Below are positions 15,942-59,459 of a stretch of DNA of 64,000 nucleotides, one piece after another. Position 1 is the stretch's first letter. Each line of letters starts with the position of its first letter. The translations under genes and the position numbers were made by a program. Below the pieces are notes generated by a model, which did no database searches, was not told the DNA's origin, and saw only the letters and a program-made list of their open reading frames with translations. Source of the stretch: Closterium sp. NIES-65 (Eukaryota > Streptophyta > Zygnematophyceae > Desmidiales > Closteriaceae); contig CANXME010002579.1 in assembly GCA_948144175.1 (NCBI GenBank), forward strand, positions 1,114,001 to 1,178,000. Direction: 5' to 3'.

Positions 15942-16573
15942 TGCTGGAGTGGTTTCTACGAACCACACTAACGACGGCGAGAAATGCGGACCTACGGCGA
16001 CTTATGGCGGTGACGTGCGGAAGAAGCGAGAAGGAATTACTAAGAAGCGTCTAAGATTACTTGGCGTGTGGTCTACGCTGAGGGGAAAGGAGTAGAAACG
16101 TAAGGAAGAAATGGGAACGTAAGGAAGTTACGGGGGAATAGAGATGGGAAAGTGAAGGAATTGGTTTGACGGGGTAGGAGTTTGGGTTGAAACGATGACG
16201 TGGTTCACAAGTTTCTGAAATTCGGACTTCGGGAGTGTTCGACGAAGGAGTCGTGGTTGCGTGTGCGACGCGACGTGAAACTTGGAGTGTGGGGTAAGTT
16301 TGGTTACAAGGGAGGTTGCTTGTGGAACACGTTTTGGGTTCAGTTACGTGGGTGCATTGGGATGAGTATAAGTTAGTTGTACCAGTCAGTTGAAATATAC
16401 ACTTGGAAATTCTTTGCTTGAAGGTGCAAGACAAGCACTGGTGAGATTGAAAACTTAGTGAAACGTTCTCAGAATTAACTGCTGCGCATATCGTTGGAAT
16501 CGTGAGAACGAGGAGAACGTCATCGACAATAGCAAGCAGACTTTTGTCGATTGAGGCGTCAACGATCCTGACA
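15942..16573 (+). repeat. 5' LTR of the Gag-only element (632 bp)
   Basis: Starts TGCTGGAGTGGTTTCTACG and ends CAACGATCCTGACA. Differs from the 3' LTR by transitions near 15944, 16017 and 16196. Expected to carry promoter and polyadenylation signals; none can be assigned confidently by eye. Confidence 0.93.
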
Positions 16574-16575
16574 GT

Positions 16576-18681: not shown

Positions 18682-19313
18682 TGTTGGAGTGGTTTCTACG
18701 AACCACACTAACGACGGCGAGAAATGCGGACCTACGGCGACTTATGGCGGTGACGTGTGGAAGAAGCGAGAAGGAATTACTAAGAAGCGTCTAAGATTAC
18801 TTGGCGTGTGGTCTACGCTGAGGGGAAAGGAGTAGAAACGTAAGGAAGAAATGGGAACGTAAGGAAGTTACGGGGGAATAGAGATGGGAAAGTGAAGGAA
18901 TTGGTTTGACGGGGTAGGAGTTTGGGTTGAAACGATGGCGTGGTTCACAAGTTTCTGAAATTCGGACTTCGGGAGTGTTCGACGAAGGAGTCGTGGTTGC
19001 GTGTGCGACGCGACGTGAAACTTGGAGTGTGGGGTAAGTTTGGTTACAAGGGAGGTTGCTTGTGGAACACGTTTTGGGTTCAGTTACGTGGGTGCATTGG
19101 GATGAGTATAAGTTAGTTGTACCAGTCAGTTGAAATATACACTTGGAAATTCTTTGCTTGAAGGTGCAAGACAAGCACTGGTGAGATTGAAAACTTAGTG
19201 AAACGTTCTCAGAATTAACTGCTGCGCATATCGTTGGAATCGTGAGAACGAGGAGAACGTCATCGACAATAGCAAGCAGACTTTTGTCGATTGAGGCGTC
19301 AACGATCCTGACA
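18682..19313 (+). repeat. 3' LTR of the Gag-only element (632 bp)
   Basis: Starts TGTTGGAGTGGTTTCTACG, ends CAACGATCCTGACA, followed directly by the GGCGC duplication. Same length as the 5' LTR. Confidence 0.93.
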
Positions 19314-19375
19314 GGCGCATGGCAGAGAGACGAGAAGGGGTAGAAGGGAGCGTGGCGGAGATATGAGATGCGCGC

Positions 19376-23775: not shown

Positions 23776-23848
23776 GGGGGTGTAGCTCACATGGTAGAGC
23801 GATCGCTTCGCATGCGATAGGTGAGGGGATCGACACCCCTCACCTCCA
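23776..23848 (+). tRNA. tRNA-Ala (anticodon CGC)
   Basis: The 7-bp acceptor stem pairs GGGGGTG with CACCTCC (one G-T pair), followed by discriminator A. The anticodon stem ATCGC/GCGAT encloses TTCGCAT, giving CGC, which reads the GCG alanine codon. The T stem is AGGGG/CCCCT. The T loop reads ATCGACA rather than the usual TTCGANN, a mild departure. No intron and no encoded CCA, as expected of a nuclear gene. It lies 87 bases upstream of DPH2, divergently oriented. Confidence 0.93.
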
Positions 23849-27990: not shown

Positions 27991-28317
27991 TGTAAGGAAT
28001 TTTCTCGGCATTCCTTACGGAGCCGACTACATCGCGTACAGCAACAGCCGATTGTTCGCCCGTTACTGCTAACGGGACTTCGCCGACTTCGCGCGCACTG
28101 TTTTGCCAAACCTCGCACTGCTGGCATGGCCGTGTCGGCCTACGCTTCGGGACTAGCCCGAGCCTCGCTCCAGCGTAGCACTAGCAAGCTCGCACGCACC
28201 GCGTTACCGTTTTGCATGTTTCGCGTATAAATGTTCGCTCATGCCTTCGCTCACATTTTGTACTCGTTTGACTCTCTAGTGCAATTCTCGCTACCTCGAT
28301 TCATTGCACCCGTAACA
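27991..28317 (+). repeat. gypsy 5' LTR
   Basis: Starts TGTAAGGAATTTTCTCGG, ends TTGCACCCGTAACA. A TATAAA at about 28227 (GCGTATAAATGTTCG) is a plausible promoter TATA box. Confidence 0.95.
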
Positions 28318-33322: not shown

Positions 33323-33649
33323 TGTAAGGAATTTTCTCGGCATTCCTTACGGAGCCGACTACATCGCGTACAGCAACAGCCGATTGTTCGCCCGTTACTG
33401 CTAACGGGACTTCGCCGACTTCGCGCGCACTGTTTTGCCAAACCTCGCACTGCTGGCATGGCCGTGTCGGCCTACGCTTTGGGACTAGCCCGAGCCTCGC
33501 TCCAGCGTAGCACTAGCAAGCTCGCACGCACCGCGTTACCGTTTTGCATGTTTCGCGTATAAATGTTCGCTCATGCCTTCGCTCACATTTTGTACTCGTT
33601 TGACTCTCTAGTGCAATTCTCGCTACCTCGATTCATTGCACCCGTAACA
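33323..33649 (+). repeat. gypsy 3' LTR
   Basis: Same 327-bp length and ends as the 5' LTR, followed by the ACACA duplication. Confidence 0.95.
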
Positions 33650-35396: not shown

Positions 35397-38140
35397 CCGC
35401 CACCCCCAGCGATCTCATAGATAGGCTGCCGGAGTATCTCTGGCACAAAGTCTTCCGCTACCTGCTGCTGCCGCCCGGCTCCTCCCACCCTGAGACTCCC
35501 CTTGTCCGGGGCAGACAAATCACTCCATGGTATCTCGCCGCAAAAGAGCAGCCCACAGCGCGCAAAGACCTGCCCGTGAAATTTGCGGACCCTTATTTCA
35601 CGCCAGCCGGGCAGCACTGGAAGAACGCGAGGAGCTATGGCAGTGGGTGGGCGCTGCTGTGCTGCGCCATGGCCAGCAAGAGGCTCCTCTCGCTCGTCCT
35701 CTCCTTCTCTGTGAGTTGTGCTCTGCTCTGCGCTCTCTGCTCTGCACTTGCTCTCCTGGGCTTCGAAACCCGCACGCCTTTTTAAGTTCCACCATGCTCC
35801 GGATATGAGATTCTTAGAACAGGTGCTGATTGATCATAAAGCGGATCCCACAACATTTTATTTGACAACTTCAATCCAAGACCATTCCTTCCCGTCCCTT
35901 ACTCCCATTCCAGACCTATCACCTTCTCTCCTCCAATCCTCTCCGTCCCTCTCCGCTCCGCAGCCCACCACCCCACGCACTGAATACAACGAGGTGCACC
36001 CGCAGTGGGGCAAGAGTGTTGTCTGCTTCCTGTGCTGGCGCTGAGCTGACTTCTGAGTCGCTCAAAAGTGAATAACCAATCCCATTCGTCCATCTCCGCT
36101 CCGCAGACCCACCACCCCATCGCACTGATTAAAAACAACGAGGTGCAACCCTAGTGGATCAAAATCGTCGCACTATTCAAATCACGCTTCGATCTCAAAT
36201 TCCTAGAGCGGGTTAGTCCTCAAACCAACCTTCCGGTGCCTCCCTTCCTTCACCCTTATCTCTCTCTACAGGCCGACCAACCCATCGACCTGGTATACAA
36301 CGAGCTGCACCCGCAGTGGATCAACAGCGTCGAATCCTTCCTTCGCCAACACCGCCTCAGGTCCCTCGCCCTCACCTTCACGGGCAAGGAGCAGCTCACA
36401 TACCTCGACTCGCCACGCAAGGAGCAGTTCAGATACCGCGACTCGCCACTTCGCCGGCCCTTTACCTCCCTCACCTCCCTCAGTCTCAAGCTGCGCGGCA
36501 CTGTCGCCGACAAATCCGACAACTATGACTACCGTTATAAAAAATATGCGGAAATTGAGTGGGAAGAGGAGCGGGAGAAGGAATCCTGGACCATCACCTT
36601 GGACTGCCCGGCTCTGCAGCGGCTGAAGCTAGGCCGAGGCAAGTGGGGACTCGAGGAAGGCTGGGCTGAGCGGTTCAAGTCGCTGCGCAGCTTGACCCTC
36701 AAGCACATGGATTGGAGCTACGTGGATCTTGATTATCTCGCCACGCTCACGCCGCAACTCACGGAGTTCGTTCTTTATCACAGCTGGGATTTTAACCGCC
36801 CGTCATCAGGCCCCGTTGGCGACGAAACATTCACTTTCGACTTATCAAAAGCCCAAACTGTCCGCTTTTACTTTCCGCACAGCACCATCACGCTCTCCCT
36901 CACACTCTCTTCTTCGCTCACAACCTTCACGGCGATGGGGAAACAACTCGTGCTCTCGTGCAAGAGCACAGAACCCCTCACTCTCCAGCACCTCTTGCTG
37001 TACGGCCAGCAGCGGCTTGTCATCTCCTCCCTCCGCCTCGCTTCCGTACGAGTTGCCTACCTCAACGGCCCTCCCAAAGACGTGCACCCACGCGATGACA
37101 AATTCTCTTCCTACCTGGACTTTCCTGAATTGTCCCTTCAGTTTTTACCTGAACTTTCGCCTGACAGGGAGAGCGTGCACAGCTCTGCTGCATTCTCCTG
37201 GGCTGAATGGCTGCGCACCATAGCGCCAACAGTGGAGGTGCTTATAGTGAGGCATGGGGTGCCTGTAGAGGGGGTTGATGCGGAGTGGAGCAGCCTGCGC
37301 AGCCTTGGGATTGTCGTGGAGAGAGAGGAGCTGTTTGAGGTGGATTTGAAGGTTGAGAAGCGTCGGGATGACGGTGAGAGGGAGGTTACAGTGGAGGAGT
37401 TTGTGCCACAGCAGCGGCAGCAGCAGCGGGAGCACTTGCAGCAGCAGATTTCAAAGCAGCAAGCTTTACAGCAGCGGCTTTTGCAGCAGCAGCAGCAGCA
37501 GCTGCAGCAGCAGCAGCAGCAGCTGCAGCAGCAGCAGCAGCAGCAACCGCAGCAGCAGCAGCGGCAGCGGCAGCAGCAGCGGCCGCGGCAGCGGCAGCGG
37601 CAGCAGCGGCAGTTGCAGCCGCAGCAGATTTTACAGCAGCAGCAACGTTTGCAGCAGCAGATTTTGCAGCAGCAACGTTTGCAGCAGCAGCTTTTGCAGC
37701 AGCAGCAGCAGCTTTTGCAGCAGCAGCAGCAGCAGCAGCAGCAGGATGGGGAGGAGGAGGGGCAGGAGGGGCAGCAGCAAGAAGAAAGACCGCCCTTTAT
37801 CTTGGCTCCAAACTTGCGAGCAATCTTCTTCCCCACCTGCACATGCGAGCAGCAAACCCTTTCTTCCCTCCGCGAATTCTGTCCGTCTCTCGCCCTGTAC
37901 TGCATCTCACGTCGCTCATTCTACTGGGAGAAGCAGGGGAAGCAGTTGCCAGATACTCCTATGATTCATGTGAGGAAGGCGAGAAGCGGGGTGCCATGCG
38001 CTTGCTTTGCGGAGAAGCGGCCTAAGAACTTGCGGGAGAAGATGCACAGTGTGAATAGGGAGCTGGTGGATGGGTACAGTGTTGATAAAGAAGAGGCTTA
38101 TATGTGGAAGTACAAAGGGAGCCTGTGGAGCAGATACTGA
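35397..38140 (+). CDS. F-box/LRR-like protein with polyQ region, unit A; start codon lost
   Basis: Exon 1 (35397-35710) encodes an F-box-like start, DRLPEYLWHKVFRYLLLP...CCAMASKRLLSLVLSFS, ending at a GTGAGT donor. Exon 2 (36272-38140) joins in phase 0 and carries weak leucine-rich segments (FKSLRSLTLKHMDW, TPQLTEFVLYHSW, TVEVLIVRHGVPVEG), a Gln-rich stretch (about 37405-37743) and a conserved tail (RPPFILAPNLRAIFFPTCTC...). F-box proteins usually recruit substrates to SCF ubiquitin ligases; that role is inferred. The ATG used by the unit B gene is AGG here (35416-35418) and no other in-frame ATG precedes the F-box in this exon. It may start in an unseen exon or be a pseudogene. Confidence 0.6.
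35952..36180 (+). repeat. two broken copies of F-box-like exon 2 start
   Basis: At about 35960 (CTCCGCAG, then CCCACCACCCCACGCACTGA) and 36105 (CTCCGCAG, then ACCCACCACCCCATCGCACT) the acceptor and first 70-90 bases of exon 2 are repeated. The first ends in TGA after FLCWR; the second has a TAG in place of the Trp of HPQW. The intact exon starts at 36272. Confidence 0.85.
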
Positions 38141-40514: not shown

Positions 40515-43157
<2,643 letters not shown>

Positions 43158-44538: not shown

Positions 44539-47500
44539 ATGGGCGGTCCCGCGGACGGGCTAGGGCTCGGCGCGGAGGTCAACGGGGGCGCGGAGTCCGT
44601 CGCGGATCTCCTCGCGCTCCCCCCCGACGCCGTTCCGCGGAGCGAACTTTTCTTCCGCCTTGCGCGCGCGCATTTCCGTGCAGCCGTCTCCGCCTCCGCG
44701 GGTGGCCCCGCCAACCCCGCGGACCCCGCAAGCTCCCCTGTGGGTGGCGCAAATGACGCCGGGGGAGGCGGGGATAGTAACGACAATAGTAGCGACGAGG
44801 CGCTCGCTTTAGACGTCGTCCGAAACGCGGTTCAGCCTTCCGAGCGGCCCGACCACGTTCCGTCTCTTATTCTCGCGTCCGTGATTTGCGCGCGGCGTGA
44901 CACGTGGAGCGAGGAGGGCGTGCGCTACGGCGAACGCGCCGTCGAGCTCGCTGCCAGCAGCGGCCCGCAGCGCGCTAAGGCGCTCCACGCGTTGGGAGTT
45001 AATCTTCTGCTACACTCGCGAAGCCATTATATTTCCGCGGCTCGGCGTGACCAGAGTCTAAAGCGCGCCGTTGAGTCGCTAACCCAGGCGTCAGAAGAAG
45101 ATTCCACGTCAGCAGCTATAATGGTAGATCTCGCGCTCGCGTTGGCCGAGCAGCGCCACGTCAGCGAGGCGCTGAAAGTCGCCAAGCGCGCTCTGAAAGC
45201 CGGCGGCGGACAGTGGCTGCTGACGTGGCAGCTGCTGGCGCTGCTGCTGACGTGTCAGCAGCGATTCAAGGACGCGGAAGACATGTGCCGCGTGGGGGAA
45301 GCCGCCATGAAGAAAGCGGCGGGCGCAGGGGGAGGGGGAACAGGGGGAGGGGGAGTGGATGGGGGGGAGAAAGGGGAGGGCGCAAGGGCAGCGCTGCTGG
45401 TGCTGCACGCTAAGGTGCACCTAGCGAGTGGGGAGCTAGGGGGAGAGGGGGGGGAAGGGGAAGGCGGAGGCGGGGCGGATGGGAGCGGTGGTGTGAGTGC
45501 AGGCGTTGGTGAGGCTGTGGAGAGCTTGAAGGCAGCACTGGCAGCTGTGCAGTCACGACAGAAGCGAGGCGACATGGTGAGAGCAGGGGCAGGGAGGGAG
45601 GGAGGGAAGGAAGGAGTGAGGGAGGAGGGGAGGGGTGAAGATGGTTGAGGCAGTGGTGCAGTGTGGCAGTGGTGCAGTGTGAGTGCAGGCGTTGGCGGCA
45701 TGGTGAGAGCAGGGGTAGCATGGTGAGAGCAGGGGTAGCATGGTGAGAGCAGGGGTAGCATGGTGAGAGCAGGGGTAGCATGGTGAGAGCAGGGGTAGCA
45801 TGGTGAGAGCAGGGGTAGCATGGTGAGAGCAGGGGTAGCATGGTGAGAGCAGGGGTAGCATGGTGAGAGCAGGGGTAGCATGGTGAGCGCAGGGGTAGCA
45901 TGGTGAGAGCAGGGGTAGCATGGTGAGCAGGGGTAGCATGGTGAGAGCAGGGGTAGCATGGTGAGAGCAGGGGTAGCATGGTGAGCGCAGGGGTAGCATG
46001 GTGAGAGCAGGGGTAGCATGGTGAGAGCAGGGGTAGCATGGTGACAGCAGGGGTAGCATGGTGAGAGCAGGGGTAGCATGGTGAGAGCAGGGGTAGCATG
46101 GTGAGAGCAGGGGTAGCATGGTGAGCGCAGGGGTAGCATGGTGAGAGCAGGGGTAGCATGGTGAGCGCAGGGGTAGCATGGTGAGAGCAGGGGTAGCATG
46201 GTGAGAGCAGGGGTAGCATGGTGAGAGCAGGGGTAGCATGGTGAGCGCAGGGGTAGCATGGTGAGAGCAGGGGTAGCATGGTGAGCGCAGGGGTAGCATG
46301 GTGAGAGCAGGGGTAGCATGGTGAGAGCAGGGGTAGCATGGTGAGAGCAGGGGTAGCATGGTGAGCGCAGGGGTAGCATGGTGAGAGCAGGGGTAGCATG
46401 GTGAGCGCAGGGGTAGCATGGTGAGAGCAGGGGTAGCATGGTGAGAGCAGGGGTAGCATGGTGAGCGCAGGGGTAGCATGGTGAGAGCAGGGGTAGCATG
46501 GTGAGAGCAGGGGTAGCATGGTGAGCGCAGGGGTAGCATGGTGAGAGCAGGGGTAGCATGGTGAGAGCAGGGGTAGCATGGTGAGAGCAGGGGTAGCATG
46601 GTGAGAGCAGGGGTAGCATGGTGAGCGCAGGGGTAGCATGGTGAGAGCAGGGGGTAGCATGGTGAGAGCAGGGGTAGCATGGTGAGCGCAGGGGTAGCAT
46701 GGTGAGAGCAGGGGTAGCATGGTGAGAGCAGGGGTAGCATGGTGAGAGCAGGGGTAGCATGGTGAGAGCAGGGTAGCATGGTGAGAGCAGGGGTAGCATG
46801 GTGACAGCAGGGGTAGCATGGTGAGAGCAGGGGTAGCATGGTGAGAGCAGGGGTAGCATGGTGAGAGCAGGGGTAGCATGGTGAGCGCAGGGGTAGCATG
46901 GTGAGAGCAGGGGTAGCATGGTGAGAGCAGGGTAGCATGGTGAGCGCAGGGGTAGCATGTGAGAGCAGGGGTAGCATGGTGAGAGCAGGGGTAGCATGGT
47001 GAGAGCAGGGGTAGCATGGTGAGCGCAGGGGTAGCATGGTGAGAGCAGGGGTAGCATGGTGAGCGCAGGGGTAGCATGGTGAGAGCAGGGGTAGCATGGT
47101 GAGAGCAGGGGTAGCATGGTGAGAGCAGGGGTAGCATGGTGAGCGCAGGGGTAGCATGGTGAGAGCAGGGGTAGCATGGTGAGCGCAGGGGTAGCATGGT
47201 GAGAGCAGGGGTAGCATGGTGAGAGCAGGGGTAGCATGGTGAGAGCAGGGGTAGCATGGTGAGCGCAGGGGTAGCATGGTGAGAGCAGGGGTAGCATGGT
47301 GAGAGCAGGGGTAGCATGGTGAGAGCAGGGGTAGCATGGTGAGAGCAGGGGTAGCATGGTGAGCGCAGGGGTAGCATGGTGAGAGCAGGGGTAGCATGGT
47401 GAGAGCAGGGGTAGCATGGTGAGAGCAGGGGTAGCATGGTGAGCGCAGGGGTAGCATGGTGAGAGCAGGGGTAGCATGGTGAGAGCAGGGGTAGCATGGT

Positions 47501-50500
47501 GACAGCAGGGGTAGCATGGTGAGAGCAGGGGTAGCATGGTGAGAGCAGGGGTAGCATGGTGAGAGCAGGGGTAGCATGGTGAGCGCAGGGGTAGCATGGT
47601 GAGCGCAGGGTAGCATGGTGAGAGCAGGGGTAGCATGGTGAGCGCAGGGGTAGCATGGTGAGAGCAGGGGTAGCATGGTGAGAGCAGGGGTAGCATGGTG
47701 AGAGCAGGGGTAGCATGGTGAGAGCAGGGGTAGCATGGTGAGCGCAGGGGTAGCATGGTGAGAGCAGGGGTAGCATGGTGAGAGCAGGGGTAGCATGGTG
47801 AGAGCAGGGGTAGCATGGTGAGAGCAGGGGTAGCATGGTGAGAGCAGGGGTAGCATGGTGAGCGCAGGGGTAGCATGGTGAGAGCAGGGGTAGCATGGTG
47901 AGAGCAGGGGTAGCATGGTGAGCGCAGGGGTAGCATGGTGAGAGCAGGGGTAGCATGGTGAGAGCAGGGGTAGCATGGTGAGCGCAGGGGTAGCATGGTG
48001 AGAGCAGGGGTAGCATGGTGAGAGCAGGGGTAGCATGGTGACAGCAGGGGTAGCATGGTGAGAGCAGGGGTAGCATGGTGAGAGCAGGGGTAGCATGGTG
48101 AGAGCAGGGGTAGCATGGTGAGCGCAGGGGTAGCATGGTGAGAGCAGGGGTAGCATGGTGAGCGCAGGGGTAGCATGGTGAGAGCAGGGGTAGCATGGTG
48201 AGAGCAGGGGTAGCATGGTGAGAGCAGGGGTAGCATGGTGAGCGCAGGGGTAGCATGGTGAGAGCAGGGGTAGCATGGTGAGCGCAGGGGTAGCATGGTG
48301 AGAGCAGGGGTAGCATGGTGAGAGCAGGGTTAGCATGGTGAGAGCAGGGGTAGCATGGTGAGCGCAGGGGTAGCATGGTGAGAGCAGGGGTAGCATGGTG
48401 AGCGCAGGGGTAGCATGGTGAGAGCAGGGGTAGCATGGTGAGAGCAGGGGTAGCATGGTGAGCGCAGGGGTAGCATGGTGAGAGCAGGGGTAGCATGGTG
48501 AGAGCAGGGGTAGCATGGTGAGAGCAGGGGTAGCATGGTGAGAGCAGGGGTAGCATGGTGAGCGCAGGGGTAGCATGGTGAGAGCAGGGGTAGCATGGTG
48601 AGAGCAGGGGTAGCATGGTGAGAGCAGGGGTAGCATGGTGAGAGCAGGGGTAGCATGGTGAGCGCAGGGGTAGCATGGTGAGAGCAGGGGTAGCATGGTG
48701 AGAGCAGGGGTAGCATGGTGACAGCAGGGGTAGCATGGTGAGAGCAGGGGTAGCATGGTGAGAGCAGGGGTAGCATGGTGAGAGCAGGGGTAGCATGGTG
48801 AGCGCAGGGGTAGCATGGTGAGAGCAGGGGTAGCATGGTGAGCGCAGGGGTAGCATGGTGAGCGCAGGGGTAGCATGGTGAGAGCAGGGGTAGCATGGTG
48901 AGAGCAGGGGTAGCATGGTGAGCGCAGGGGTAGCTTTGTGAGAGCAGTGGTAGCATGGTGAGAGCAGGGGTAGCATGGTGAGAGCAGTGGTAGCATGGTG
49001 AGAGCAGGGGTAGCATGGTGAGAGCAGGGGTAGCATGGTGAGCGCAGGGGTAGCATGGTGAGAGCAGGGGTAGCATGGTGAGAGCAGGGGTAGCATGGTG
49101 AGCGCAGGGGTAGCATGGTGAGAGCAGGGGTAGCATGGTGAGCGCAGGGGTAGCATGGTGAGAGCAGGGGTAGCATGGTGAGCGCAGGGGTAGCAGTGTG
49201 AGCGCAGGGGTAGCATGGTGAGAGCAGGGGTAGCATGGTGAGCGCAGGGGTAGCATGGTGAGAGCAGGGGTAGCATGGTGAGAGCAGGGGTAGCATGGTG
49301 AGAGCAGGGGTAGCATGGTGAGAGCAGGGGTAGCATGGTGAGAGCAGGGGTAGCATGGTGAGCGCAGGGGTAGCATGGTGAGAGCAGGGGTAGCATGGTG
49401 AGCGCAGGGGTAGCATGGTGAGAGCAGGGGTAGCATGGTGAGAGCAGGGGTAGCATGGTGAGCGCAGGGGTAGCATGGTGAGAGCAGGGGTAGCATGGTG
49501 AGAGCAGGGGTAGCATGGTGAGAGCAGGGGTAGCATGGTGAGAGCAGGGGTAGCATGGTGAGAGGAGGGGTAGCATGGTGAGCGCAGGGGTAGCATGGTG
49601 AGCGCAGGGGTGGCATGGTGAGAGCAGGGGTAGCATGGTGAGCGCAGGGGTAGCATGGTGAGAGCAGGGGTAGCATGGTGAGCGCAGGGGTAGCATGGTG
49701 AGAGCAGGGGTAGCATGGTGAGAGCAGGGGTAGCATGGTGAGAGCAGGGGTAGCATGGTGAGCGCAGGGGTAGCATGGTGAGAGCAGGGGTAGCATGGTG
49801 AGAGCAGGGGTAGCATGGTGAGCGCAGGGGTAGCATGGTGAGAGCAGGGGTAGCATGGTGAGAGCAGGGGTAGCATGGTGAGAGCAGGGGTAGCATGGTG
49901 AGCGCAGGGGTAGCATGGTGAGAGCAGGGGTAGCATGGTGAGCGCAGGGGTAGCATGGTGAGAGCAGGGGTAGCATGGTGAGCGCAGGGGTAGCATGGTG
50001 AGAGCAGGGGTAGCATGGTGAGAGCAGGGGTAGCATGGTGACAGCAGGGGTAGCATGGTGAGAGCAGGGGTAGCATGGTGAGAGCAGGGGTAGCATGGTG
50101 AGAGCAGGGGGTAGCATGGTGAGCGCAGGGGTAGCATGGTGAGAGCAGGGGTAGCATGGTGAGCGCAGGGGTAGCATGGTGAGCGCAGGGGTAGCATGGT
50201 GAGAGCAGGGGTAGCATGGTGAGAGCAGGGGTAGCATGGTGAGCGCAGGGGTAGCTTTGTGAGAGCAGTGGTAGCATGGTGAGAGCAGGGGTAGCATGGT
50301 GAGAGCAGTGGTAGCATGGTGAGAGCAGGGGTAGCATGGTGAGAGCAGGGGTAGCATGGTGAGCGCAGGGGTAGCATGGTGAGAGCAGGGGTAGCATGGT
50401 GAGAGCAGGGGTAGCATGGTGAGCGCAGGGGTAGCATGGTGAGAGCAGGGGTAGCATGGTGAGCGCAGGGGTAGCATGGTGAGAGCAGGGGTAGCATGGT

Positions 50501-53500
50501 GAGCGCAGGGGTAGCAGTGTGAGCGCAGGGGTAGCATGGTGAGAGCAGGGGTAGCATGGTGAGCGCAGGGGTAGCATGGTGAGAGCAGGGGTAGCATGGT
50601 GAGAGCAGGGGTAGCATGGTGAGAGCAGGGGTGTAGCATGGTGAGAGCAGGGGTAGCATGGTGAGCGCAGGGGTAGCATGGTGAGAGCAGGGGTAGCATG
50701 GTGAGAGCAGGGGTAGCATGGTGAGCGCAGGGGTAGCATGGTGAGAGCAGGGGTAGCATGGTGAGAGCAGGGGTAGCATGGTGAGAGCAGGGGTAGCATG
50801 GTGAGAGCAGGGGTAGCATGGTGAGCGCAGGGTAGCATGGTGAGAGCAGGGGTAGCATGGTGAGAGCAGGGGTAGCATGGTGAGAGCAGGGGTAGCATGG
50901 TGAGAGCAGGGGTAGCATGGTGAGAGCAGGGGTAGCATGGTGAGAGCAGGGGTAGCATGGTGAGAGCAGGGGTAGCATGGTGAGAGCAGGGGTAGCATGG
51001 TGAGAGCAGGGGTAGCATGGTGAGAGCAGGGGTAGCATGGTGAGAGCAGGGGTAGCATGGTGAGAGAGGGGTAGCATGGTGAGAGCAGGGGTAGCATGGT
51101 GAGAGCAGGGGTAGCATGGTGAGAGCAGGGTAGCATGGTGAGAGCAGGGGTAGCATGGTGAGAGCAGGGGTAGCATGGTGAGAGCAGGGGTAGCATGGTG
51201 AGAGCAGGGGTAGCATGGTGAGAGCAGGGGGTAGCATGGTGAGCGCAGGGGTAGCATGGTGAGAGCAGGGGTAGCATGGTGAGAGCAGGGGTAGCATGGT
51301 GAGAGCAGGGGTAGCATGGTGAGAGCAGGGGTAGCATGGTGAGAGCAGGGGTAGCATGGTGAGAGCAGGGGTAGCATGGTGAGAGCAGGGGTAGCATGGT
51401 GAGAGCAGGGGTAGCATGGTGAGCGCAGGGGTAGCATGGTGAGAGAAGGGGTAGCATGGTGAGAGCAGGGGTAGCATGGTGAGAGCAGGGGTAGCATGGT
51501 GAGAGCAGGGGTAGCATGGTGAGAGCAGGGGTAGCATGGTGAGAGCAGGGGTAGCATGGTGAGAGCAGGGGTAGCATGGTGAGAGCAGGGGTAGCATGGT
51601 GAGAGCAGGGGTAGCATGGTGAGAGCAGGGGTAGCATGGTGAGAGCAGGGGTAGCATGGTGAGAGCAGGGGTAGCATGGTGAGAGCAGGGGTAGCATGGT
51701 GAGAGAAGGGGTAGCATGGTGAGAGCAGGGGTAGCATGGTGAGCGCAGGGGTAGCATGGTGAGAGCAGGGGTAGCATGGTGAGAGCAGGGGTAGCATGGT
51801 GAGAGCAGGGGTAGCATGGTGAGCGCAGGGGTAGCATGGTGAGAGCAGGGGTAGCATGGTGAGAGCAGGGGTAGCATGGTGAGAGCAGGGGTAGCATGGT
51901 GAGAGCAGGGGTAGCATGGTGAGAGCAGGGGTAGCATGGTGAGAGCAGGGGTAGCATGGTGAGAGCAGGGGTAGCATGGTGAGAGCAGGGGTAGCATGGT
52001 GAGAGCAGGGGTAGCATGGTGAGAGAAGGGGTAGCATGGTGAGAGCAGGGGTAGCATGGTGAGCGCAGGGGTAGCATGGTGAGAGCAGGGGTAGCATGGT
52101 GAGAGCAGGGGTAGCATGGTGAGAGCAGGGGTAGCATGGTGAGAGCAGGGGTAGCATGGTGAGAGCAGGGGTAGCATGGTGAGAGCAGGGGTAGCATGGT
52201 GAGAGCAGGGGTAGCATGGTGAGAGCAGGGGTAGCATGGTGAGAGCAGGGGTAGCATGGTGAGAGAAGGGGTAGCATGGTGAGAGCAGGGGTAGCATGGT
52301 GAGCGCAGGGGTAGCATGGTGAGAGCAGGGGTAGCATGGTGAGAGCAGGGGTAGCATGGTGAGAGCAGGGGTAGCATGGTGAGAGCAGGGGTAGCATGGT
52401 GAGCGCAGGGGTAGCATGGTGAGAGCAGGGGTAGCATGGTGAGAGCAGGGGTAGCATGGTGAGAGCAGGGGTAGCATGGTGAGAGAAGGGGTAGCATGGT
52501 GAGAGCAGGGGTAGCATGGTGAGCGCAGGGGTAGCATGGTGGGTAGCATGGTGAGAGCAGGGGTAGCATGGTGAGAGCAGGGGTAGCATGGTGAGAGCAG
52601 GGGTAGCATGGTGAGAGCAGGGGTAGCATGGTGAGAGCAGGGGTAGCATGGTGAGAGCAGGGGTAGCATGGTGAGAGCAGGGGTAGCATGGTGAGAGAAG
52701 GGGTAGCATGGTGAGAGCAGGGGTAGCATGGTGAGCGCAGGGGTAGCATGGTGAGAGCAGGGGTAGCATGGTGAGAGCAGGGGTAGCATGGTGAGAGCAG
52801 GGGTAGCATGGTGAGAGCAGGGGTAGCATGGTGAGAGCAGGGGTAGCATGGTGAGAGCAGGGGTAGCATGGTGAGAGCAGGGGTAGCATGGTGAGCGCAG
52901 GGGTAGCATGGTGAGAGCAGGGGTAGCATGGTGAGAGCAGGGGTAGCATGGTGAGAGCAGGGGTAGCATGGTGAGCGCAGGGGTAGCTTTGTGAGAGCAG
53001 TGGTAGCATGGTGAGAGCAGGGGTAGCATGGTGAGAGCAGTGGTAGCATGGTGAGAGCAGGGGTAGCATGGTGAGCGCAGGGGTAGCATGGTGAGCGCAG
53101 GGGTAGCATGGTGAGAGCAGGGGTAGCATGGTGAGAGCAGGGGTAGCATGGTGAGCGCAGGGGTAGCATGGTGAGAGCAGGGGTAGCATGGTGAGCGCAG
53201 GGGTAGCATGGTGAGAGAAGGGGTAGCATGGTGAGCGCAGGGGTAGCATGGTGAGAGCAGGGGTAGCATGGTGAGCGCAGGGGTAGCATGGTGAGCGCAG
53301 GGGTAGCATGGTGAGAGCAGGGGTAGCATGGTGAGAGCAGGGGTAGCATGGTGAGAGCAGGGGTAGCATGGTGAGAGCAGGGGTAGCATGGTGAGAGCAG
53401 GGGTAGCATGGTGAGCGCAGGGGTAGCATGGTGAGAGCAGGGGTAGCATGGTGAGAGCAGGGGTAGCATGGTGAGCGCAGGGGTAGCATGGTGAGCGCAG

Positions 53501-55946
53501 GGGTAGCATGGTGAGAGCAGGGGTAGCATGGTGAGAGCAGGGGTAGCATGGTGAGAGCAGGGGTAGCATGGTGAGAGCAGGGGTAGCATGGTGAGAGCAG
53601 GGGTAGCATGGCGGCCGTACAGTCATGGCAGAAGCGAGGCAACATGGTGATAGTAGGGGCAGCGAGGAAGGCTGGGAAAGGGTAGATAAGGCAGTGGTGC
53701 AGTGCAGTGCAGTGCGGCAGTGTGACCAGTTGAGGTTGAGGCATGTCCTGCAGCATGAAGCATGGTCAAAAGCATGGGTTATGGCATGGTGAGAAGCCCA
53801 GTTGGTTGGAAGCATGGCTTCAGGCGTACATTATCCCAGCTCGTTGGTTGGGCGGCTCAGCAACAGAAGCAAATGTGTGGAACTGCGGGGTGTTAGTTTT
53901 AGTTTTCTCAAAAATACCCTGTGGTTTTCTTTTGTCAAATATTCTGACCCATTCTCTTCTCCTCTTCCCACCACACAAGGCGGTTCAGTGACGGAAGCAG
54001 TGGTGTGGCAGTGTCTGGCAGAGGCGTATCTGTTTTTTTAGTTGACTCAGAGAAGTATTGGTGCTGGCATACGTTCCCCCAACCCATTCTCTTATGTCCC
54101 CCACCCCCCACCCTCTTCCCACCACACAGGGCGGGTCAGTGACAGAAGCAGTTGTGTGGCAGTGTTTGGCGGAGGCGTATCTAACTGGCGGGCGGGCGGC
54201 AGATGCCGACCTTTGTGTGGCCAAGTGTCAGACGCTGGACCCATACTCTGCTGACACGTGGATGGTGGCAGGTGAGTCATGGAGGCAAGTAATATGCTAG
54301 TAGCGTGGTTGAATTGAGACTTGGGAACCCCATTTCAATACAAATTGGTGTGTTGTGATAGAACAGCAGGTGGTTTTTGAGGCTCAAAAACGACCTCAGG
54401 TGAGTCATGGAGGGAAGTGATATGCTAGTAGCGTGGTTGAATCGAAACTTGGAACCCCGTTTCGATACAGAATGGTGTGTTGGGATAGGACAGTAGGTTC
54501 TCAGGAACCCCAGACCTTTTTTTTTTGTGTCCAGTGAAAAAACAGAAGGGTGTAATAGGACAGTAAGTTGTAGGTTCCCAGAGACCTAGATTCTATTAAA
54601 CTCAAAAAGAACCCTCGGAAAGCAAAATGATGTGATAGGGGCCAGGGCAGTAGGTTGTCAGGAACCCCAGGGTGTGATAGGATAGGAGACGATTGGGCCC
54701 CCCTGTCTTGGTTAGACGTTCCAAACGCAGCTCCCAAACGCAGCTCCCAAACGCAGCTCCCAAACGCAGCTCCCAAACGCAGCTCCCAAACGCAGCTCCC
54801 AAACGCAGCTCCCAAACGCAGCTCCCAAACGCAGCTCCCGAACGCAGCTCCCAAACGCAGCTCCCCTGCCAGATGTTATCTCCCTGCCCTCGTCCCCGCT
54901 TCCCCTCGGCCCCGCTTCCCCTCGGCCCCGCTTCCCCTCGGCCCCTCTCCCGCTCCCTTCCTCGCCCTCACCCCTCCAGGCATGCTAGAAGAAGCAAAAT
55001 GCTGTCCCTGCAAGGCCTTTGCCTGCAACTGCAGCACCTGCCATTCCACCAATCCCTCTCTGCCTCCCTCCTCACTCTCACGTTCTCACTCTCACATCCT
55101 CGCTCTGTCATCCTCTTGTCTCTCACTCTTCTAAGCATGCGAGAAAAGGCGAGAAGCCACTGTCATAAGGACCTTGCATGCAACAGCACTGTAATGGCCA
55201 TCAACCAATCCTTCTCCCCCTCCTCCTCCTGTCTCACCCTCCCACCACACCACACTCCCCCAGCCATGCTAGAAGATGCAAGATCCTGCCCCCAGGAGGC
55301 CCTGGCGTGCTACCGTGTTGCACTGTCCACCAACCAGTCCCTCCGCCCTTCCCTCCCCACACATCAGCACTCTCACGTCCTCTCTCTCCCCCACTCCCCA
55401 GCCATGCTAGAAGATGCAAGATCCTGCCCCCAGGAGGCCCTGGCCTGCTACTGCAGTGCCCTGGCCATCAACTGCTCGTTCCACCCCTCCCTCCCCACTC
55501 CCACATCCTCGCTCTCACACCCTCACTCTCACATGATCATTCACATCCCCACTCTCCCATCCTCTCCCATCCTCTCCCATCCTCTCCCCCTCACTCCCAC
55601 AGGCATGCTTGAAGAGGCAAGAGGCTGCCCCGAGGAGGCCCTTGCCTGCTACCGCAGTGCCTTGGCCATCGACCAATGGCACGCTGCCAGCAAGGCACGG
55701 CTGGGAGCCCTGCTGCTGCAGATGGGCGGGGAGTGGCTGCACATGGCGCAGGTGTACCTGAGGGAGGTGGTATCTGGTGATGGGTTTGATGCACGTGCGT
55801 GGCATGTGCTGGGATTGGTGGAGAGAGGGCGTGGGGATGTGGGAGCTGCTGCCGAGTGTTTCAGGCGAGCTATGGAGGCGGAGGAAACGGCCCCTGCTGT
55901 GCCGTTTAATACACTTAGGCCGATCCTGCCGCAGCTGCTTCTGTAA
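44539..55946 (+). CDS. NPG/TTC7-like tetratricopeptide repeat protein, three exons
   Basis: ATG 44539 has CGCCATGG context. Exon 1 is 44539-45576, exon 2 54130-54271 and exon 3 55603-55946. They join in frame to give about 507 residues ending at TAA. TPR-like helices include EGVRYGERAVELAASSGPQR, VDLALALAEQRHVSEALKVA and LLALLLTCQQRFKDAEDMC in exon 1, TEAVVWQCLAEAYLTGGRAA in exon 2, and EEALACYRSALAIDQWHAAS plus DVGAAAECFRRAMEAEE in exon 3. Layout and the C-terminal EETAPxxPF motif resemble plant NPG proteins (calmodulin-binding, linked to PI4-kinase complexes like animal TTC7), but the N-terminal half of those is not seen. Gly-rich inserts interrupt exon 1 near 45320-45490. Intron 1 is 8.55 kb, almost all minisatellite. 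Confidence 0.8.
45698..53610 (+). repeat. giant intronic minisatellite, 20-bp unit, about 396 copies
   Basis: Unit CATGGTGAGAGCAGGGGTAG, exactly three per 60 bases over most of the tract. Common variants are GAGCGCAG, GACAGCAG and GAGAGAAG; rare units lack or gain one G. Larger blocks recur: a TAGCTTTGTGAGAGCAGTGG marker appears at about 48931, 50251 and 52986, the first two exactly 66 units apart with the same following variants. The unit matches the exon 1/intron 1 junction (45570-45586) over CATGGTGAGAGCAGGGG. Because it has no stop in any minus-strand frame and 20 is not divisible by 3, very long antisense open frames arise automatically; they are not genes. Confidence 0.97.
53611..53740 (+). 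repeat. second copy of TPR exon 1 end and donor, after the array
   Basis: GCGGCCGTACAGTCATGGCA, then GAAGCGAGGCAACATG|GTGATAG, repeats exon 1 bases about 45540-45583 with a few changes. The following GGGCAGCGAGG...GGCAGTGGTGCAG matches the start of intron 1 (45587-45680). The array is thus bracketed by direct repeats of the exon/intron border. Confidence 0.88.
53975..54041 (+). repeat. broken copy of TPR exon 2 start
   Basis: CCACCACACAAGGCGGTTCA through GAGGCGTATCTG repeats the acceptor and first 55 bases of exon 2 (54130 on), then runs into TTTTTTTAG. The acceptor has an extra A (ACACAAG). Upstream pyrimidine-rich sequence is also shared (ACCCATTCTCTT). Confidence 0.85.
54272..54500 (+). 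repeat. duplicated exon 2 donor region
   Basis: CAGGTGAGTCATGGAGG plus about 95 following bases occurs at 54269-54370 and again at 54398-54500 (GATATGCTAGTAGCGTGGTT in both). The second copy starts at the splice junction, giving a second potential donor without exon sequence. Confidence 0.85.
54721..54865 (+). repeat. 13-bp minisatellite, about 11 copies
   Basis: Unit CCAAACGCAGCTC, nearly perfect, in intron 2 of the TPR gene, followed by a short CGGCCCCGCTTCCCCT triplication. Confidence 0.92.
54978..55490 (+). repeat. four pseudo-copies of TPR exon 3 start
   Basis: Copies begin near 54980, 55136, 55263 and 55403. Each follows a C/T-rich tract ending at or near CAG and starts GCATGCTAGAAGA-type sequence. 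Their translations run parallel to GMLEEARGCPEEALACYRSA (for example AMLEDARSCPQEALACYCSA). All fade after about 85 bases, so each is an acceptor with a half exon and no donor. The genuine exon starts at 55603. Confidence 0.88.
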
Positions 55947-57442: not shown

Positions 57443-59232
57443 ATGGCTCACCGAGTCGCATGCTGCAGCGGAGTAGCAACAACAGCTCCTGTTGGTGCCA
57501 TTCTCCCGCGCGCCACGTCAGCACGCACTCTGGATCTCCGCCGCTCTCTGCTTTCCGCAACCTTCCCCAGCGCCATCGCTCCGCACATAGCCGCCTCCTT
57601 CCCCAGTCGGCGCGCTTCAGCCACCCCCCGCGCGTCTCAGTCTTCTGCCGACGCCGCCACACGCACCACCGGCGCGCATGCGCCTTCGTCCGCCACGAAT
57701 TCCCCAGAGTCCGCGGAAGCATCCGCGCGGGAGGCTGCCGCGCTAGAGGCCGCGGCGGCGCGCGTAATAACCCTCTCGAGCCGCGAAGAATATGATCGGC
57801 TGATGGCGGAGGCTAAGAACAAAGGGCGACTCGCTGTAGTCGAGGTTACTATGTCTACCCTCCCCAATACCGACCGGATTTACAATACCCTCGTGGAAAC
57901 TGCGCGGTTGTTTCCGAACACGGTGTTCCTGCGCATTTTCGCGGACAAGGGCGCGGAGCTGCGCGGGTTGGCGCAGAGCATGCAGTGCGCGCGCGTGCCG
58001 TCGTACGTGCTGTTCCGCGAGGGGCAGCGCGTGCACGAGGACGCGGGGATGGACGCGGAGCGGCTGCGCGCCGAGCTGCTGTACTACTCCGCGGAAGGGC
58101 CCGTGCTGGAGGTGCACTCTGCGGAAGAGTTCCGCGCCCTCATTGAGGTAGGGGGGGTTGGGGGAAAGGGGAACGGGAAGAAGAAGGGGATGGGGAAGGA
58201 AGGGGGGAGGTGATAGAGATAGGATGAAGGGGAAGGGAGGAGGGTTGGGGAAGGGGATATGGGATAGGGAGAAGAGTAAGGGAAAAAGAGAGGGGGGAGA
58301 TGTGCGGGGCTCACGATCCACGTCAACGTGCTGCGCGCCGAGCTGCTGTACTACTCCGCGGAAGGGCACACTTTGCGGAATAGTTCCGCGCGCTGATTGA
58401 GGTACGGAGAGTGGGGGGAAGGGGAAGGGTAAGGGGAAGGGTAAGGGGAAGGGTAAGGGGAAGGGGAATGGGAATGGGAAGGGAGAGAGGGTTGGGGATA
58501 GGGGTTGGGGAGAAGGGGGAGATGTGCGGCTCATTATCTACACCAACGTGCTGTACTACTTTTGAGAATTCTCAAACGTGCTGTACTACTCCGCGGAAGA
58601 GTTCTGCGCGCTCACCAGGGGCGATTGGTGGGGAAGAGAGGGATTGGGGTAAAGGGGGTTTGTGGAAACGGGGAAGCGGGGGAAAAGATTCTGAGAAAAC
58701 ACATTCTGCACAAGGTCATGGCTTCTGGTCTTAAGACGCCTGGAAACCTGATAATAAATATTGAGAGCTGTCAGAAGTTTACAGTCACATGCCAGTCCAA
58801 CTGTGGCAGTACCAATGGTGATGAGATTCAGTCCCCATTCTGTGGCTGGTGCATCACCATTGAGCTCCCACTGAGTTCATCCGCATTTATCTCCCACTGA
58901 GCTCCATCTCCCCCTTGCCCCCACAGACGCACAAGGACACGGACATGCTAGTGGTGATCGAAGCAACGCTCACCTTCTGCGGTCCCTGTGTGCGCATCCA
59001 CCAAACCGTGCTCAACCTCTCCCACCGCATGGCGGGCCACGCCGTCTTCGCCCGCTTCTTTGGGGACTCGGCCGACTGCACTAAAGATTTGATTCGTGAG
59101 CTGGGGGTGGTGGAGGCACCCACGTTTCTGTTCTACCGGCGGGGGGAGCTGCTGGGCCGCTATGTGGGGTCGGGCAGAGGGGATTTGGTGGGGGAGATTC
59201 TCAAGCACCAAGGGGTGCCCGTGAGCTCGTGA
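57443..59232 (+). CDS. CDSP32: CDSP32-like chloroplast protein with two thioredoxin domains, two exons
   Basis: Plastid thioredoxin-like protein, known in plants for electron transfer to peroxiredoxins and methionine sulphoxide reductase under stress. Exon 1 (57443-58147) starts with a Ser/Arg/Ala-rich transit-like leader (to about residue 95). It continues with an N-terminal thioredoxin fold lacking a CxxC site ([30 protein letters not shown]). The donor is GAG|GTAGGG; exon 2 (58927-59232) follows CCCCACAG in phase 0. It carries the active site TFCGPC and the family signatures [27 protein letters not shown] and GEILKHQGV. Total 337 residues, close to plant CDSP32 (about 300). Broken copies of exon ends flank exon 2. 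Confidence 0.92.
58318..58618 (+). repeat. two broken copies of CDSP32 exon 1 end
   Basis: The first (58318-58401) repeats CTGCGCGCCGAGCTGCTGTA through GATTGAG|GTACGG but has GGAATAG where exon 1 has GGAAGAG, creating a stop in one frame. The second (about 58537-58618) holds CGTGCTGTACTACT twice and a shorter GCGGAAGAGTTC end. Each is followed by G-rich intron sequence like that after exon 1. Confidence 0.85.
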
Positions 59233-59250: not shown

Positions 59251-59447
59251 GTGCATTTGCGCGCTTCTTTGGTGACTCAGCGGACTGCACGAGGGAGTTG
59301 ATCCACGACCTGGGGGTGGTGGAGGCACCCACATTCCTGTTCTACCGGCGGGGAGAGCTGCTGGGGCGCTATGTGGGGTCGGGCAGGGGGGGGGGGATGT
59401 GGTGGGGGAGATTCTCAAGCACCAGGGGGTGCCCGTGAGCTCATGAG
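59251..59447 (+). pseudogene. broken copy of CDSP32 exon 2, 3' half
   Basis: GCATTTGCGCGCTTCTTTGG to GCCCGTGAGCTCATGA repeats the second half of exon 2. It encodes [20 protein letters not shown] and the YVGSG motif, then a run of G shifts the frame. It lacks the CGPC site. Tiny further echoes (GGTGGGGGAGATTCTCAAG) appear near 59655 and 59725. Confidence 0.88.
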
Positions 59448-59459
59448 TGGTACTATGCT

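What the first reader, a model, noticed from the sequence alone, without database searches (positions are those of the whole stretch)
45537..53740. About 396 decoy splice donors: a minisatellite grown from an exon/intron junction
The 20-bp unit CATGGTGAGAGCAGGGGTAG matches the exon 1 end plus intron 1 start (CATG|GTGAGAGCAGGGG) over 17 bases. The array is bracketed by direct repeats of the exon end, one at 45537-45586 and one at 53611-53660. A short copy of exon sequence (GTGTGAGTGCAGGCGTTGG) also precedes the first unit. Nearly every unit keeps GTGAGA or GTGAGC after ATG. Intron 1 thus carries hundreds of potential U1 sites in series, which might trap U1, shift donor choice, or be silenced. 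I know of no described intron of this kind.
Basis: partly seen in the sequence, partly recalled or inferred. Interest (0 to 1): 0.85.

Follow-up and report, generated by a model that had tools for sequence, protein, structure and literature searches.

The report
Splice-donor repeats filling an intron
A gene's first intron is filled by 396 copies of its own splice-start signal, and the same genome holds many other repeat arrays built on that signal, some starting exactly at real exon ends, so intron borders seem to seed repeats here, as a few human genes already show singly.

Summary
Window 45698-53611 is a 396-unit, 20-bp array in intron 1 (45577-54129) of an intact TTC7-like TPR gene. The unit shares 17 exact bases with the live donor (CATG|GTGAGAGCAGGGG), the only place in the window outside the array with a match of 12 or more. 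GT survives in 396 of 396 units, ATGGTGAG in 383. Array and flanks lie in a second, split copy of the exon 1 border.

A decoy function is not supported. The one paralog found carries a different array there (83 x 24 bp, no GTGAG). Both genes are intact (dN/dS 0.13).

"No described intron of this kind" is wrong: human ABCA7 (25-bp unit starting at exon 18's donor, 12-427 copies), CBS and IFI6 are precedents.

The larger result lies outside the window. In the 874-Mb genome CAGGTGAG recurs in close triples 34,182 times, the reversed word 349. Of 17 clusters fetched, 4 start at exon ends supported by homology, 2 more weakly.

Best reading: tandem duplications across exon/intron borders seed minisatellites, tolerated because the first donor still works. 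RNA use is untested; the control with the canonical donor broken at one base did not complete.

The parts
44539..45576 (+). exon 1 of a TPR protein of the TTC7 type; ends ATG|
   Evidence: open frame; TTC7B homology across the junction
45577..54129 (+). intron 1, 8553 bp, donor ATG|GTGAGA, acceptor CCACACAG
45664..45697 (+). left part of a second copy of the exon 1 border (copy of 45480-45509)
45698..53611 (+). 20-bp minisatellite, 396 units, each with a donor-like GT; 383 keep ATG|GTGAG
53609..53725 (+). right part of the second copy of exon 1 end and intron start (copy of 45539-45608 and 45648-45682), with a drifted donor ATG|GTGATA
53961..54031 (+). intronic copy of the exon 2 acceptor and exon 2 start (92% to 54112-54182); also present in the paralog
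54130..54271 (+). exon 2
54397..54498 (+). intronic copy of the exon 2 donor region (88% to 54269-54371)
54944..55472 (+). four tandem intronic copies of the exon 3 acceptor and exon 3 start
55603..55946 (+). exon 3 and stop
57443..58147 (+). neighbour gene (thioredoxin domain), exon 1
58330..58407 (+). intronic copy of that gene's exon 1 end and donor
58927..59232 (+). neighbour gene exon 2; a further copy lies downstream at 59256-59449

Best explanation
The array is a minisatellite seeded by tandem duplication across an exon/intron border. Steps: (1) a stretch spanning the end of exon 1 and the start of intron 1 was duplicated (shown by the split second copy); (2) within the second copy a 20-bp piece holding CATG|GTGAGAGCAGGGG expanded to 396 units and was reshuffled by block duplications (shown: a 23-unit block repeated 66 units away); (3) the live donor at 45577 stays first in the transcript and intact, so splicing is most likely unchanged and the decoys mostly silent (inferred); the array is poor in pyrimidines (T 15%, C 11%), so it offers donors without acceptors and should not make internal exons (inferred from composition); (4) any leak into a decoy would retain intron sequence and read into a stop at 45646, so the expected cost is fewer good mRNAs rather than a new protein (frame shown, consequence inferred). 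The same process acts elsewhere in this genome: both spliced genes that I modelled in the window have intronic copies of their own borders, and arrays holding CAG|GTGAG are common genome-wide, some starting exactly at real exon ends.
For: Border origin; a border copy in the paralog shares up to 16 bases with the unit. 5 of 6 junctions of the two modelled genes have a direct copy in their own intron, score 75-91, against shuffle maxima of 24-36 and reverse-complement scores of 16-24. Local copies are mostly direct: 29 rows within 1 kb against 1 inverted row; tiled segments with a direct copy: introns 23 of 52, intergenic 66 of 478 (3 inverted), coding exons 8 of 116, retroelement ORFs 0 of 279. 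Paralog intron 1 holds several ~123-bp copies of the same border and a separate 24-bp array. Block duplication score 24.3 against at most 12.9 in 60 shuffles. Genome: CAGGTGAG triples 34,182, reversed word 349; ATGGTGAG 7,430 and 1,032; ATGGAGAG, GT broken, 1,670 and 494. Arrays starting at homology-supported exon ends: GatB, two KdsA introns, a molybdopterin-binding domain gene.
Against: No RNA evidence of any kind. One of the six junctions has no copy (score 18, reverse complement 28). The run-length test on the unit map was not significant (longest repeat 25 units, longest in 100 shuffles also 25). In the window only 1 of 19 array rows (period 10-60, 5 or more copies, some rows overlapping) holds GTRAG, so most arrays here are not donor arrays. 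Counts are overlapping matches, not arrays or introns, may be swollen by duplicated contigs, and are not corrected for how common each word is. Of 17 clusters, 9 showed no exon at the array edge by these tests and 2 only by eye. The GT-broken word ATGGAGAG also exceeds its control 3.4-fold. The one-base-broken controls ATGGCGAG and CAGGCGAG and the acceptor word CCCCACAG did not complete.
Confidence: 0.75

Rival explanations
1. The array works as a regulator: hundreds of U1 sites in series bind U1 snRNP, either holding back premature polyadenylation in a long intron (telescripting, recalled) or leaking into decoy donors so that array length tunes gene output.
For: 383 copies of the live 8-mer ATGGTGAG; human ABCA7 expression falls with VNTR length and a product retaining one unit was seen; CBS activity falls with repeat number, as cited in a review.
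Against: The paralog's array at the same place has no GTGAG and that gene is as intact as this one; GT retention does not exceed that of other unit positions. In ABCA7 the one-unit retention product did not change with VNTR length and the authors exclude NMD of such products as the cause of lower expression.
Confidence: 0.12
2. GGTGAG-rich words are favoured in this genome's minisatellites for reasons unrelated to splicing (a recombination or slippage-prone motif), and some arrays happen to start at donors.
For: Arrays without visible exon contact also carry it, e.g. L031, L039, L045; ATGGAGAG also exceeds its control 3.4-fold.
Against: The excess is far stronger for the canonical donor word (98-fold) than for ATGGTGAG (7-fold) or the GT-broken word; several arrays begin at the very base of a homology-supported exon end.
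Confidence: 0.2
3. Assembly artefact: the array length or position is wrong.
For: 396 near-identical units are hard to assemble; read data are not on hand.
Against: No N in the window; a variant map with a duplicated block; border copies on both sides; other large arrays in the genome.
Confidence: 0.05

Closest known systems
ABCA7 intron 18 VNTR, human (PMC5954066; passages read)
   Same: Short unit (25 bp) whose first GT is the exon's own donor; 12 to about 427 copies, up to 10,678 bp; a one-unit retention product was seen; unit not a multiple of 3
   Different: There the array starts at the live donor; here 126 bp separate the live donor from the first array donor and the array sits in a second border copy. 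Human, variable in length and disease-linked; longer arrays go with lower expression and more exon 19 skipping, while one-unit retention did not change with length
CBS 31-bp VNTR at exon 13/intron 13, human (PMC5188458 and PMC2630376; passages read; Lievers 2001 itself not seen)
   Same: Tandem repeat at and across an exon/intron border
   Different: 16-21 copies; unit of 24 exon and 7 intron bases, as I infer from its name c.1444_1467+7
IFI6 (6-16) minisatellite, human (Turri 1995; title in reference lists, one sentence in PMC4526556; paper not held)
   Same: Minisatellite that supplies several splice donors
   Different: By that sentence, repeat units are used as alternative donors that give protein variants; array length not seen by me
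[quoted passage not shown] passages read)
   Same: Tandem duplication carrying splice signals, in a plant gene
   Different: There duplication makes a new intron; here it inflates an existing one

Membership tests
Donor-bearing intronic VNTR (ABCA7/CBS/IFI6 kind) | tandem unit contains the exon's own 5' splice site | tested here: met
   17-base identity with the border, no other match of 12 or more bases in the window outside the array
Donor-bearing intronic VNTR (ABCA7/CBS/IFI6 kind) | lies at that exon's border or in the adjoining intron | tested here: met
   intron 1, first array donor 126 bp after the live donor
Donor-bearing intronic VNTR (ABCA7/CBS/IFI6 kind) | repeat donors are used, or splicing and expression change with length | not testable with these tools
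   no RNA data on hand
Donor-bearing intronic VNTR (ABCA7/CBS/IFI6 kind) | copy number varies between individuals | not testable with these tools
   one assembly; the paralog differs in array type
Introner-type or transposon-borne intron repeat | border plus unit match a dispersed mobile element | tested here: inconclusive
   own-genome search with 45480-45800: of 211 matches (part listed) only the home place covers the whole query; the next best are the paralog's border copies; many others hit only the G-rich intron stretch. The tool skips very common words
TTC7 TPR family (host gene) | homology over the TPR region across both junctions | tested here: met
   TTC7B 1.9e-30, though an engineered TPR protein scores better (2.8e-34); Pfam TPR_2 2.7e-9

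The most novel reading that the evidence does not exclude
In this genome 5' splice sites are a leading seed of minisatellites: very many introns begin with, or contain, tandem arrays of their own donor, so that spliceosomes routinely pick one live donor out of tens to hundreds of equal copies, and exon-border duplication is a main route of intron growth.
Probability: 0.5. Interest if true: 0.85.

Novelty: new variant of a known kind. Interest (0 to 1): 0.7.

Why it matters
Single human loci with donor-bearing VNTRs are linked to changed splicing, expression and disease. A genome in which such arrays are common, with intact genes around them, would be a natural test bed for how a spliceosome chooses among equal donors (first-come, cap-proximal, exon definition) and for how introns grow. 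The paralog pair here is a ready contrast: same gene, one intron with 396 decoys, one with several in-frame border copies and an array without donors.

Tried and rejected
U1-trap reading: set aside for lack of support (paralog array without donors; no special GT retention). Antisense ORFs up to 2801 aa over the array: rejected as genes, since the 20-bp unit has no stop on the minus strand. Rfam: only a tRNA at 23776-23848. RNA folding of nine units: z -3.9, a ladder of short stems, not pursued. L010, L011: matches mainly to the G-rich intron stretch. L016: a 9-bp array without GTRAG; L013-L015: a 21-bp GTGAG array whose gene context I did not work out; L017: a GTGAG array that by eye lies antisense to a nearby exon-like stretch. 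C2172 gene (L012, L023): 19-bp array of about 372 units starting at CCG|GTGAGCGC between open frames of 293 and 611 aa whose phases fit, intron 7280 bp; its C222 copy has a 7291-bp intron with the same array; neither exon has a Pfam domain above cut-off, so the exons are only probable. A random sample of the genome could not be taken. Species: not determined; a zygnematophyte such as Closterium was only a guess from gene content and from published assembly sizes of 438-975 Mb (passages of PMC10407611). Papers: the ten searches (one search failed) listed no report of donor arrays across a genome that I recognised; they cover only the open-licence library and I saw listings, not all papers.

Full report
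What is there. The window lies at C2281:1114001-1178000 of an unnamed 874-Mb assembly of 2400 contigs. At 44539-55946 sits a three-exon gene of 507 aa, a TPR protein. Among solved natural proteins TTC7B matches best (1.9e-30; an engineered TPR protein scores 2.8e-34), and its alignment runs across both splice junctions. NPG is the plant name that I recall for this family. Intron 1 is 8553 bp; 45698-53611 of it is the array.

The unit. 396 full units were parsed: 271 of the main type, 88 with GAGC, 37 others. ATGGTGAG, the 8 bases around the live donor, stands in 383 of 396 units, GT in 396 of 396. The unit shares 17 exact bases with the border; in 5000 shuffles the longest shared run was 14, and no other place in the window outside the array shares 12 or more.

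How it arose. The border was first duplicated: 45480-45509 recurs at 45664-45695, 45539-45608 at 53609-53678, 45648-45682 at 53689-53725. The array splits that second copy. Inside the array a 23-unit block recurs 66 units on, score 24.3 against at most 12.9 in 60 shuffled orders; a simpler run-length test was not significant.

Not only here in the gene. All four junctions of this gene, and the donor of the next gene, have a direct copy in their own intron; the next gene's acceptor has none. That is 5 of 6, scores 75-91 against shuffle maxima of 24-36. Of 47 exon-interior segments in the two genes two scored 38 and 40, both overlapping a copied border; the rest stayed at 31 or less. Local copies are mostly direct: 29 rows within 1 kb (two of them from one 13-bp array) against 1 inverted row. 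They lie in introns (23 of 52 segments) and intergenic DNA (66 of 478, inverted 3) more than in coding exons (8 of 116) or retroelement ORFs (0 of 279). This fits a tandem-duplicating mutation process filtered by selection on coding sequence. I modelled only these two spliced genes of the window.

The paralog. The search found one other copy of the gene, on C2325 (4 matches at two loci). It is intact: 502 codons compared, 21 residues different, dS 0.144, dN 0.019, dN/dS 0.13. Its intron 1 (L009 2417-5297) has several ~123-bp copies of the exon 1 border, with three extra donors in frame, and an 83-copy 24-bp array, AGCATGGTACACTGCATGGTGTCT, with no GTGAG. A border copy there shares up to 16 bases with the window's unit. 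The exon 2 acceptor copy is shared by both loci. So repeats grew in intron 1 of both copies in different form, and a gene with decoys and one without them in its array are both kept by selection. The donors of the array are therefore not needed, and evidently bearable.

Genome scale. The same kind of array recurs. Three ATGGTGAG words with spacers of 6-30 bases: 7,430 matches, reversed word 1,032. ATGGAGAG, with GT broken: 1,670 and 494. CAGGTGAG, the canonical donor: 34,182 and 349, 98-fold. These are overlapping matches, so they count units rather than arrays, and word frequencies are not corrected for. The listing, which shows only the first matches and stops in contig C27, holds 17 clusters; all 17 were fetched. 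For 16 of them one open frame each, ending at the array's first donor or at a donor just before the array, was compared with Pfam; L045 had none. At 4 of 17 the first array donor ends an exon supported by homology: L030 (molybdopterin-binding domain, 1.4e-9, the match ending 8 residues before the donor), L043 (GatB, 1.4e-10; its unit repeats the last 30 bases of the exon), and L042 with L041, two introns of KdsA: the fragments alone had no Pfam hit, but the two exon ends joined match KdsA without a gap (1.5e-12). Two more are weaker: L032 (importin-13 type, 6.3e-6, just under Pfam's cut-off, the match ending 36 residues before the donor) and L046 (CFTR-like ABC domain, 2.4e-4, ranked below hits to designed proteins; 24 exon bases in the unit). 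Two look coding only by eye and recall (L033 RING-like, L035 TMEM115-like). Nine showed no exon at the edge by these tests (L031, L034, L036, L037, L038, L039, L040, L044, L045), though L037 has 159 open codons there and L044 an exon-like donor shortly before the array. Unit lengths are not tuned to the reading frame: 7 of 17 are multiples of 3. A further probable case, found by likeness to the window array, is the C2172/C222 gene pair with 7.3-kb introns.

How it most likely works. As DNA: duplication across a border, then expansion and block exchange. As RNA: the live donor comes first, and the array is poor in pyrimidines, so later donors compete only for an ever longer first exon, which general knowledge of first-exon recognition makes unlikely. 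A leak would read into a stop at 45646 and probably be destroyed by nonsense-mediated decay. These RNA steps are inferred.

What is known. Human ABCA7 has a 25-bp VNTR that begins with the donor of exon 18, 12 to about 427 copies. Longer arrays go with lower expression and more exon 19 skipping; a product with one unit retained was seen, but its share did not change with length and the authors do not hold NMD responsible (PMC5954066, passages). CBS has a 31-bp VNTR at the exon 13 border, IFI6 a minisatellite with several donors. So the kind is known. Its abundance in one genome I met in none of the search listings named under Tried and rejected.

Limits. No RNA. The best controls, the donor word broken at one base (CAGGCGAG) and an acceptor word, did not complete. 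Single-word frequencies are unknown. In the window itself only 1 of 19 array rows holds a donor word.

Noticed in passing
L009 2417-2849 (paralog intron 1): Tandem 123-bp border copies keep the reading frame, so donors at 2540, 2663 and 2786 would add 41, 82 or 123 aa to exon 1; two of them (AAG|GTGAGA) fit the donor consensus better than the first.
   Followed up: partly
57443-59232 against L009 7446-8150 and 8833-9138: The neighbouring thioredoxin-like gene is 99.4% and 100% identical in its two exons between the duplicated loci, although the TPR gene beside it has dS 0.144: local gene conversion?
   Followed up: no
54693-55946: Intronic copies of the exon 3 start lie in one long open frame with exon 3; three of four are in the exon's frame by eye, so acceptor choice could add protein segments.
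   Followed up: no
36236-38140 and 41078-43075: Two paralogous ORFs about 5 kb apart, the first with a weak LRR match below Pfam's cut-off, with polyglutamine/CAG tracts of different length.
   Followed up: no
45255-53815, minus strand: Open reading frames up to 2801 aa over the array, a trap for gene callers because the 20-bp unit has no stop on that strand.
   Followed up: yes
L016 1353-5001; L017 2189-4101: Other large arrays sharing GAGAGCAGG (9-bp unit x405; 16-bp unit x119), the second with GTGAG in its unit.
   Followed up: partly
15942-16574 and 18682-19314; 27991-28317 and 33323-33649: Direct repeats of 99.5-99.7% identity on either side of Copia-like and Ty3-like ORFs: young retroelement insertions.
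   Followed up: no
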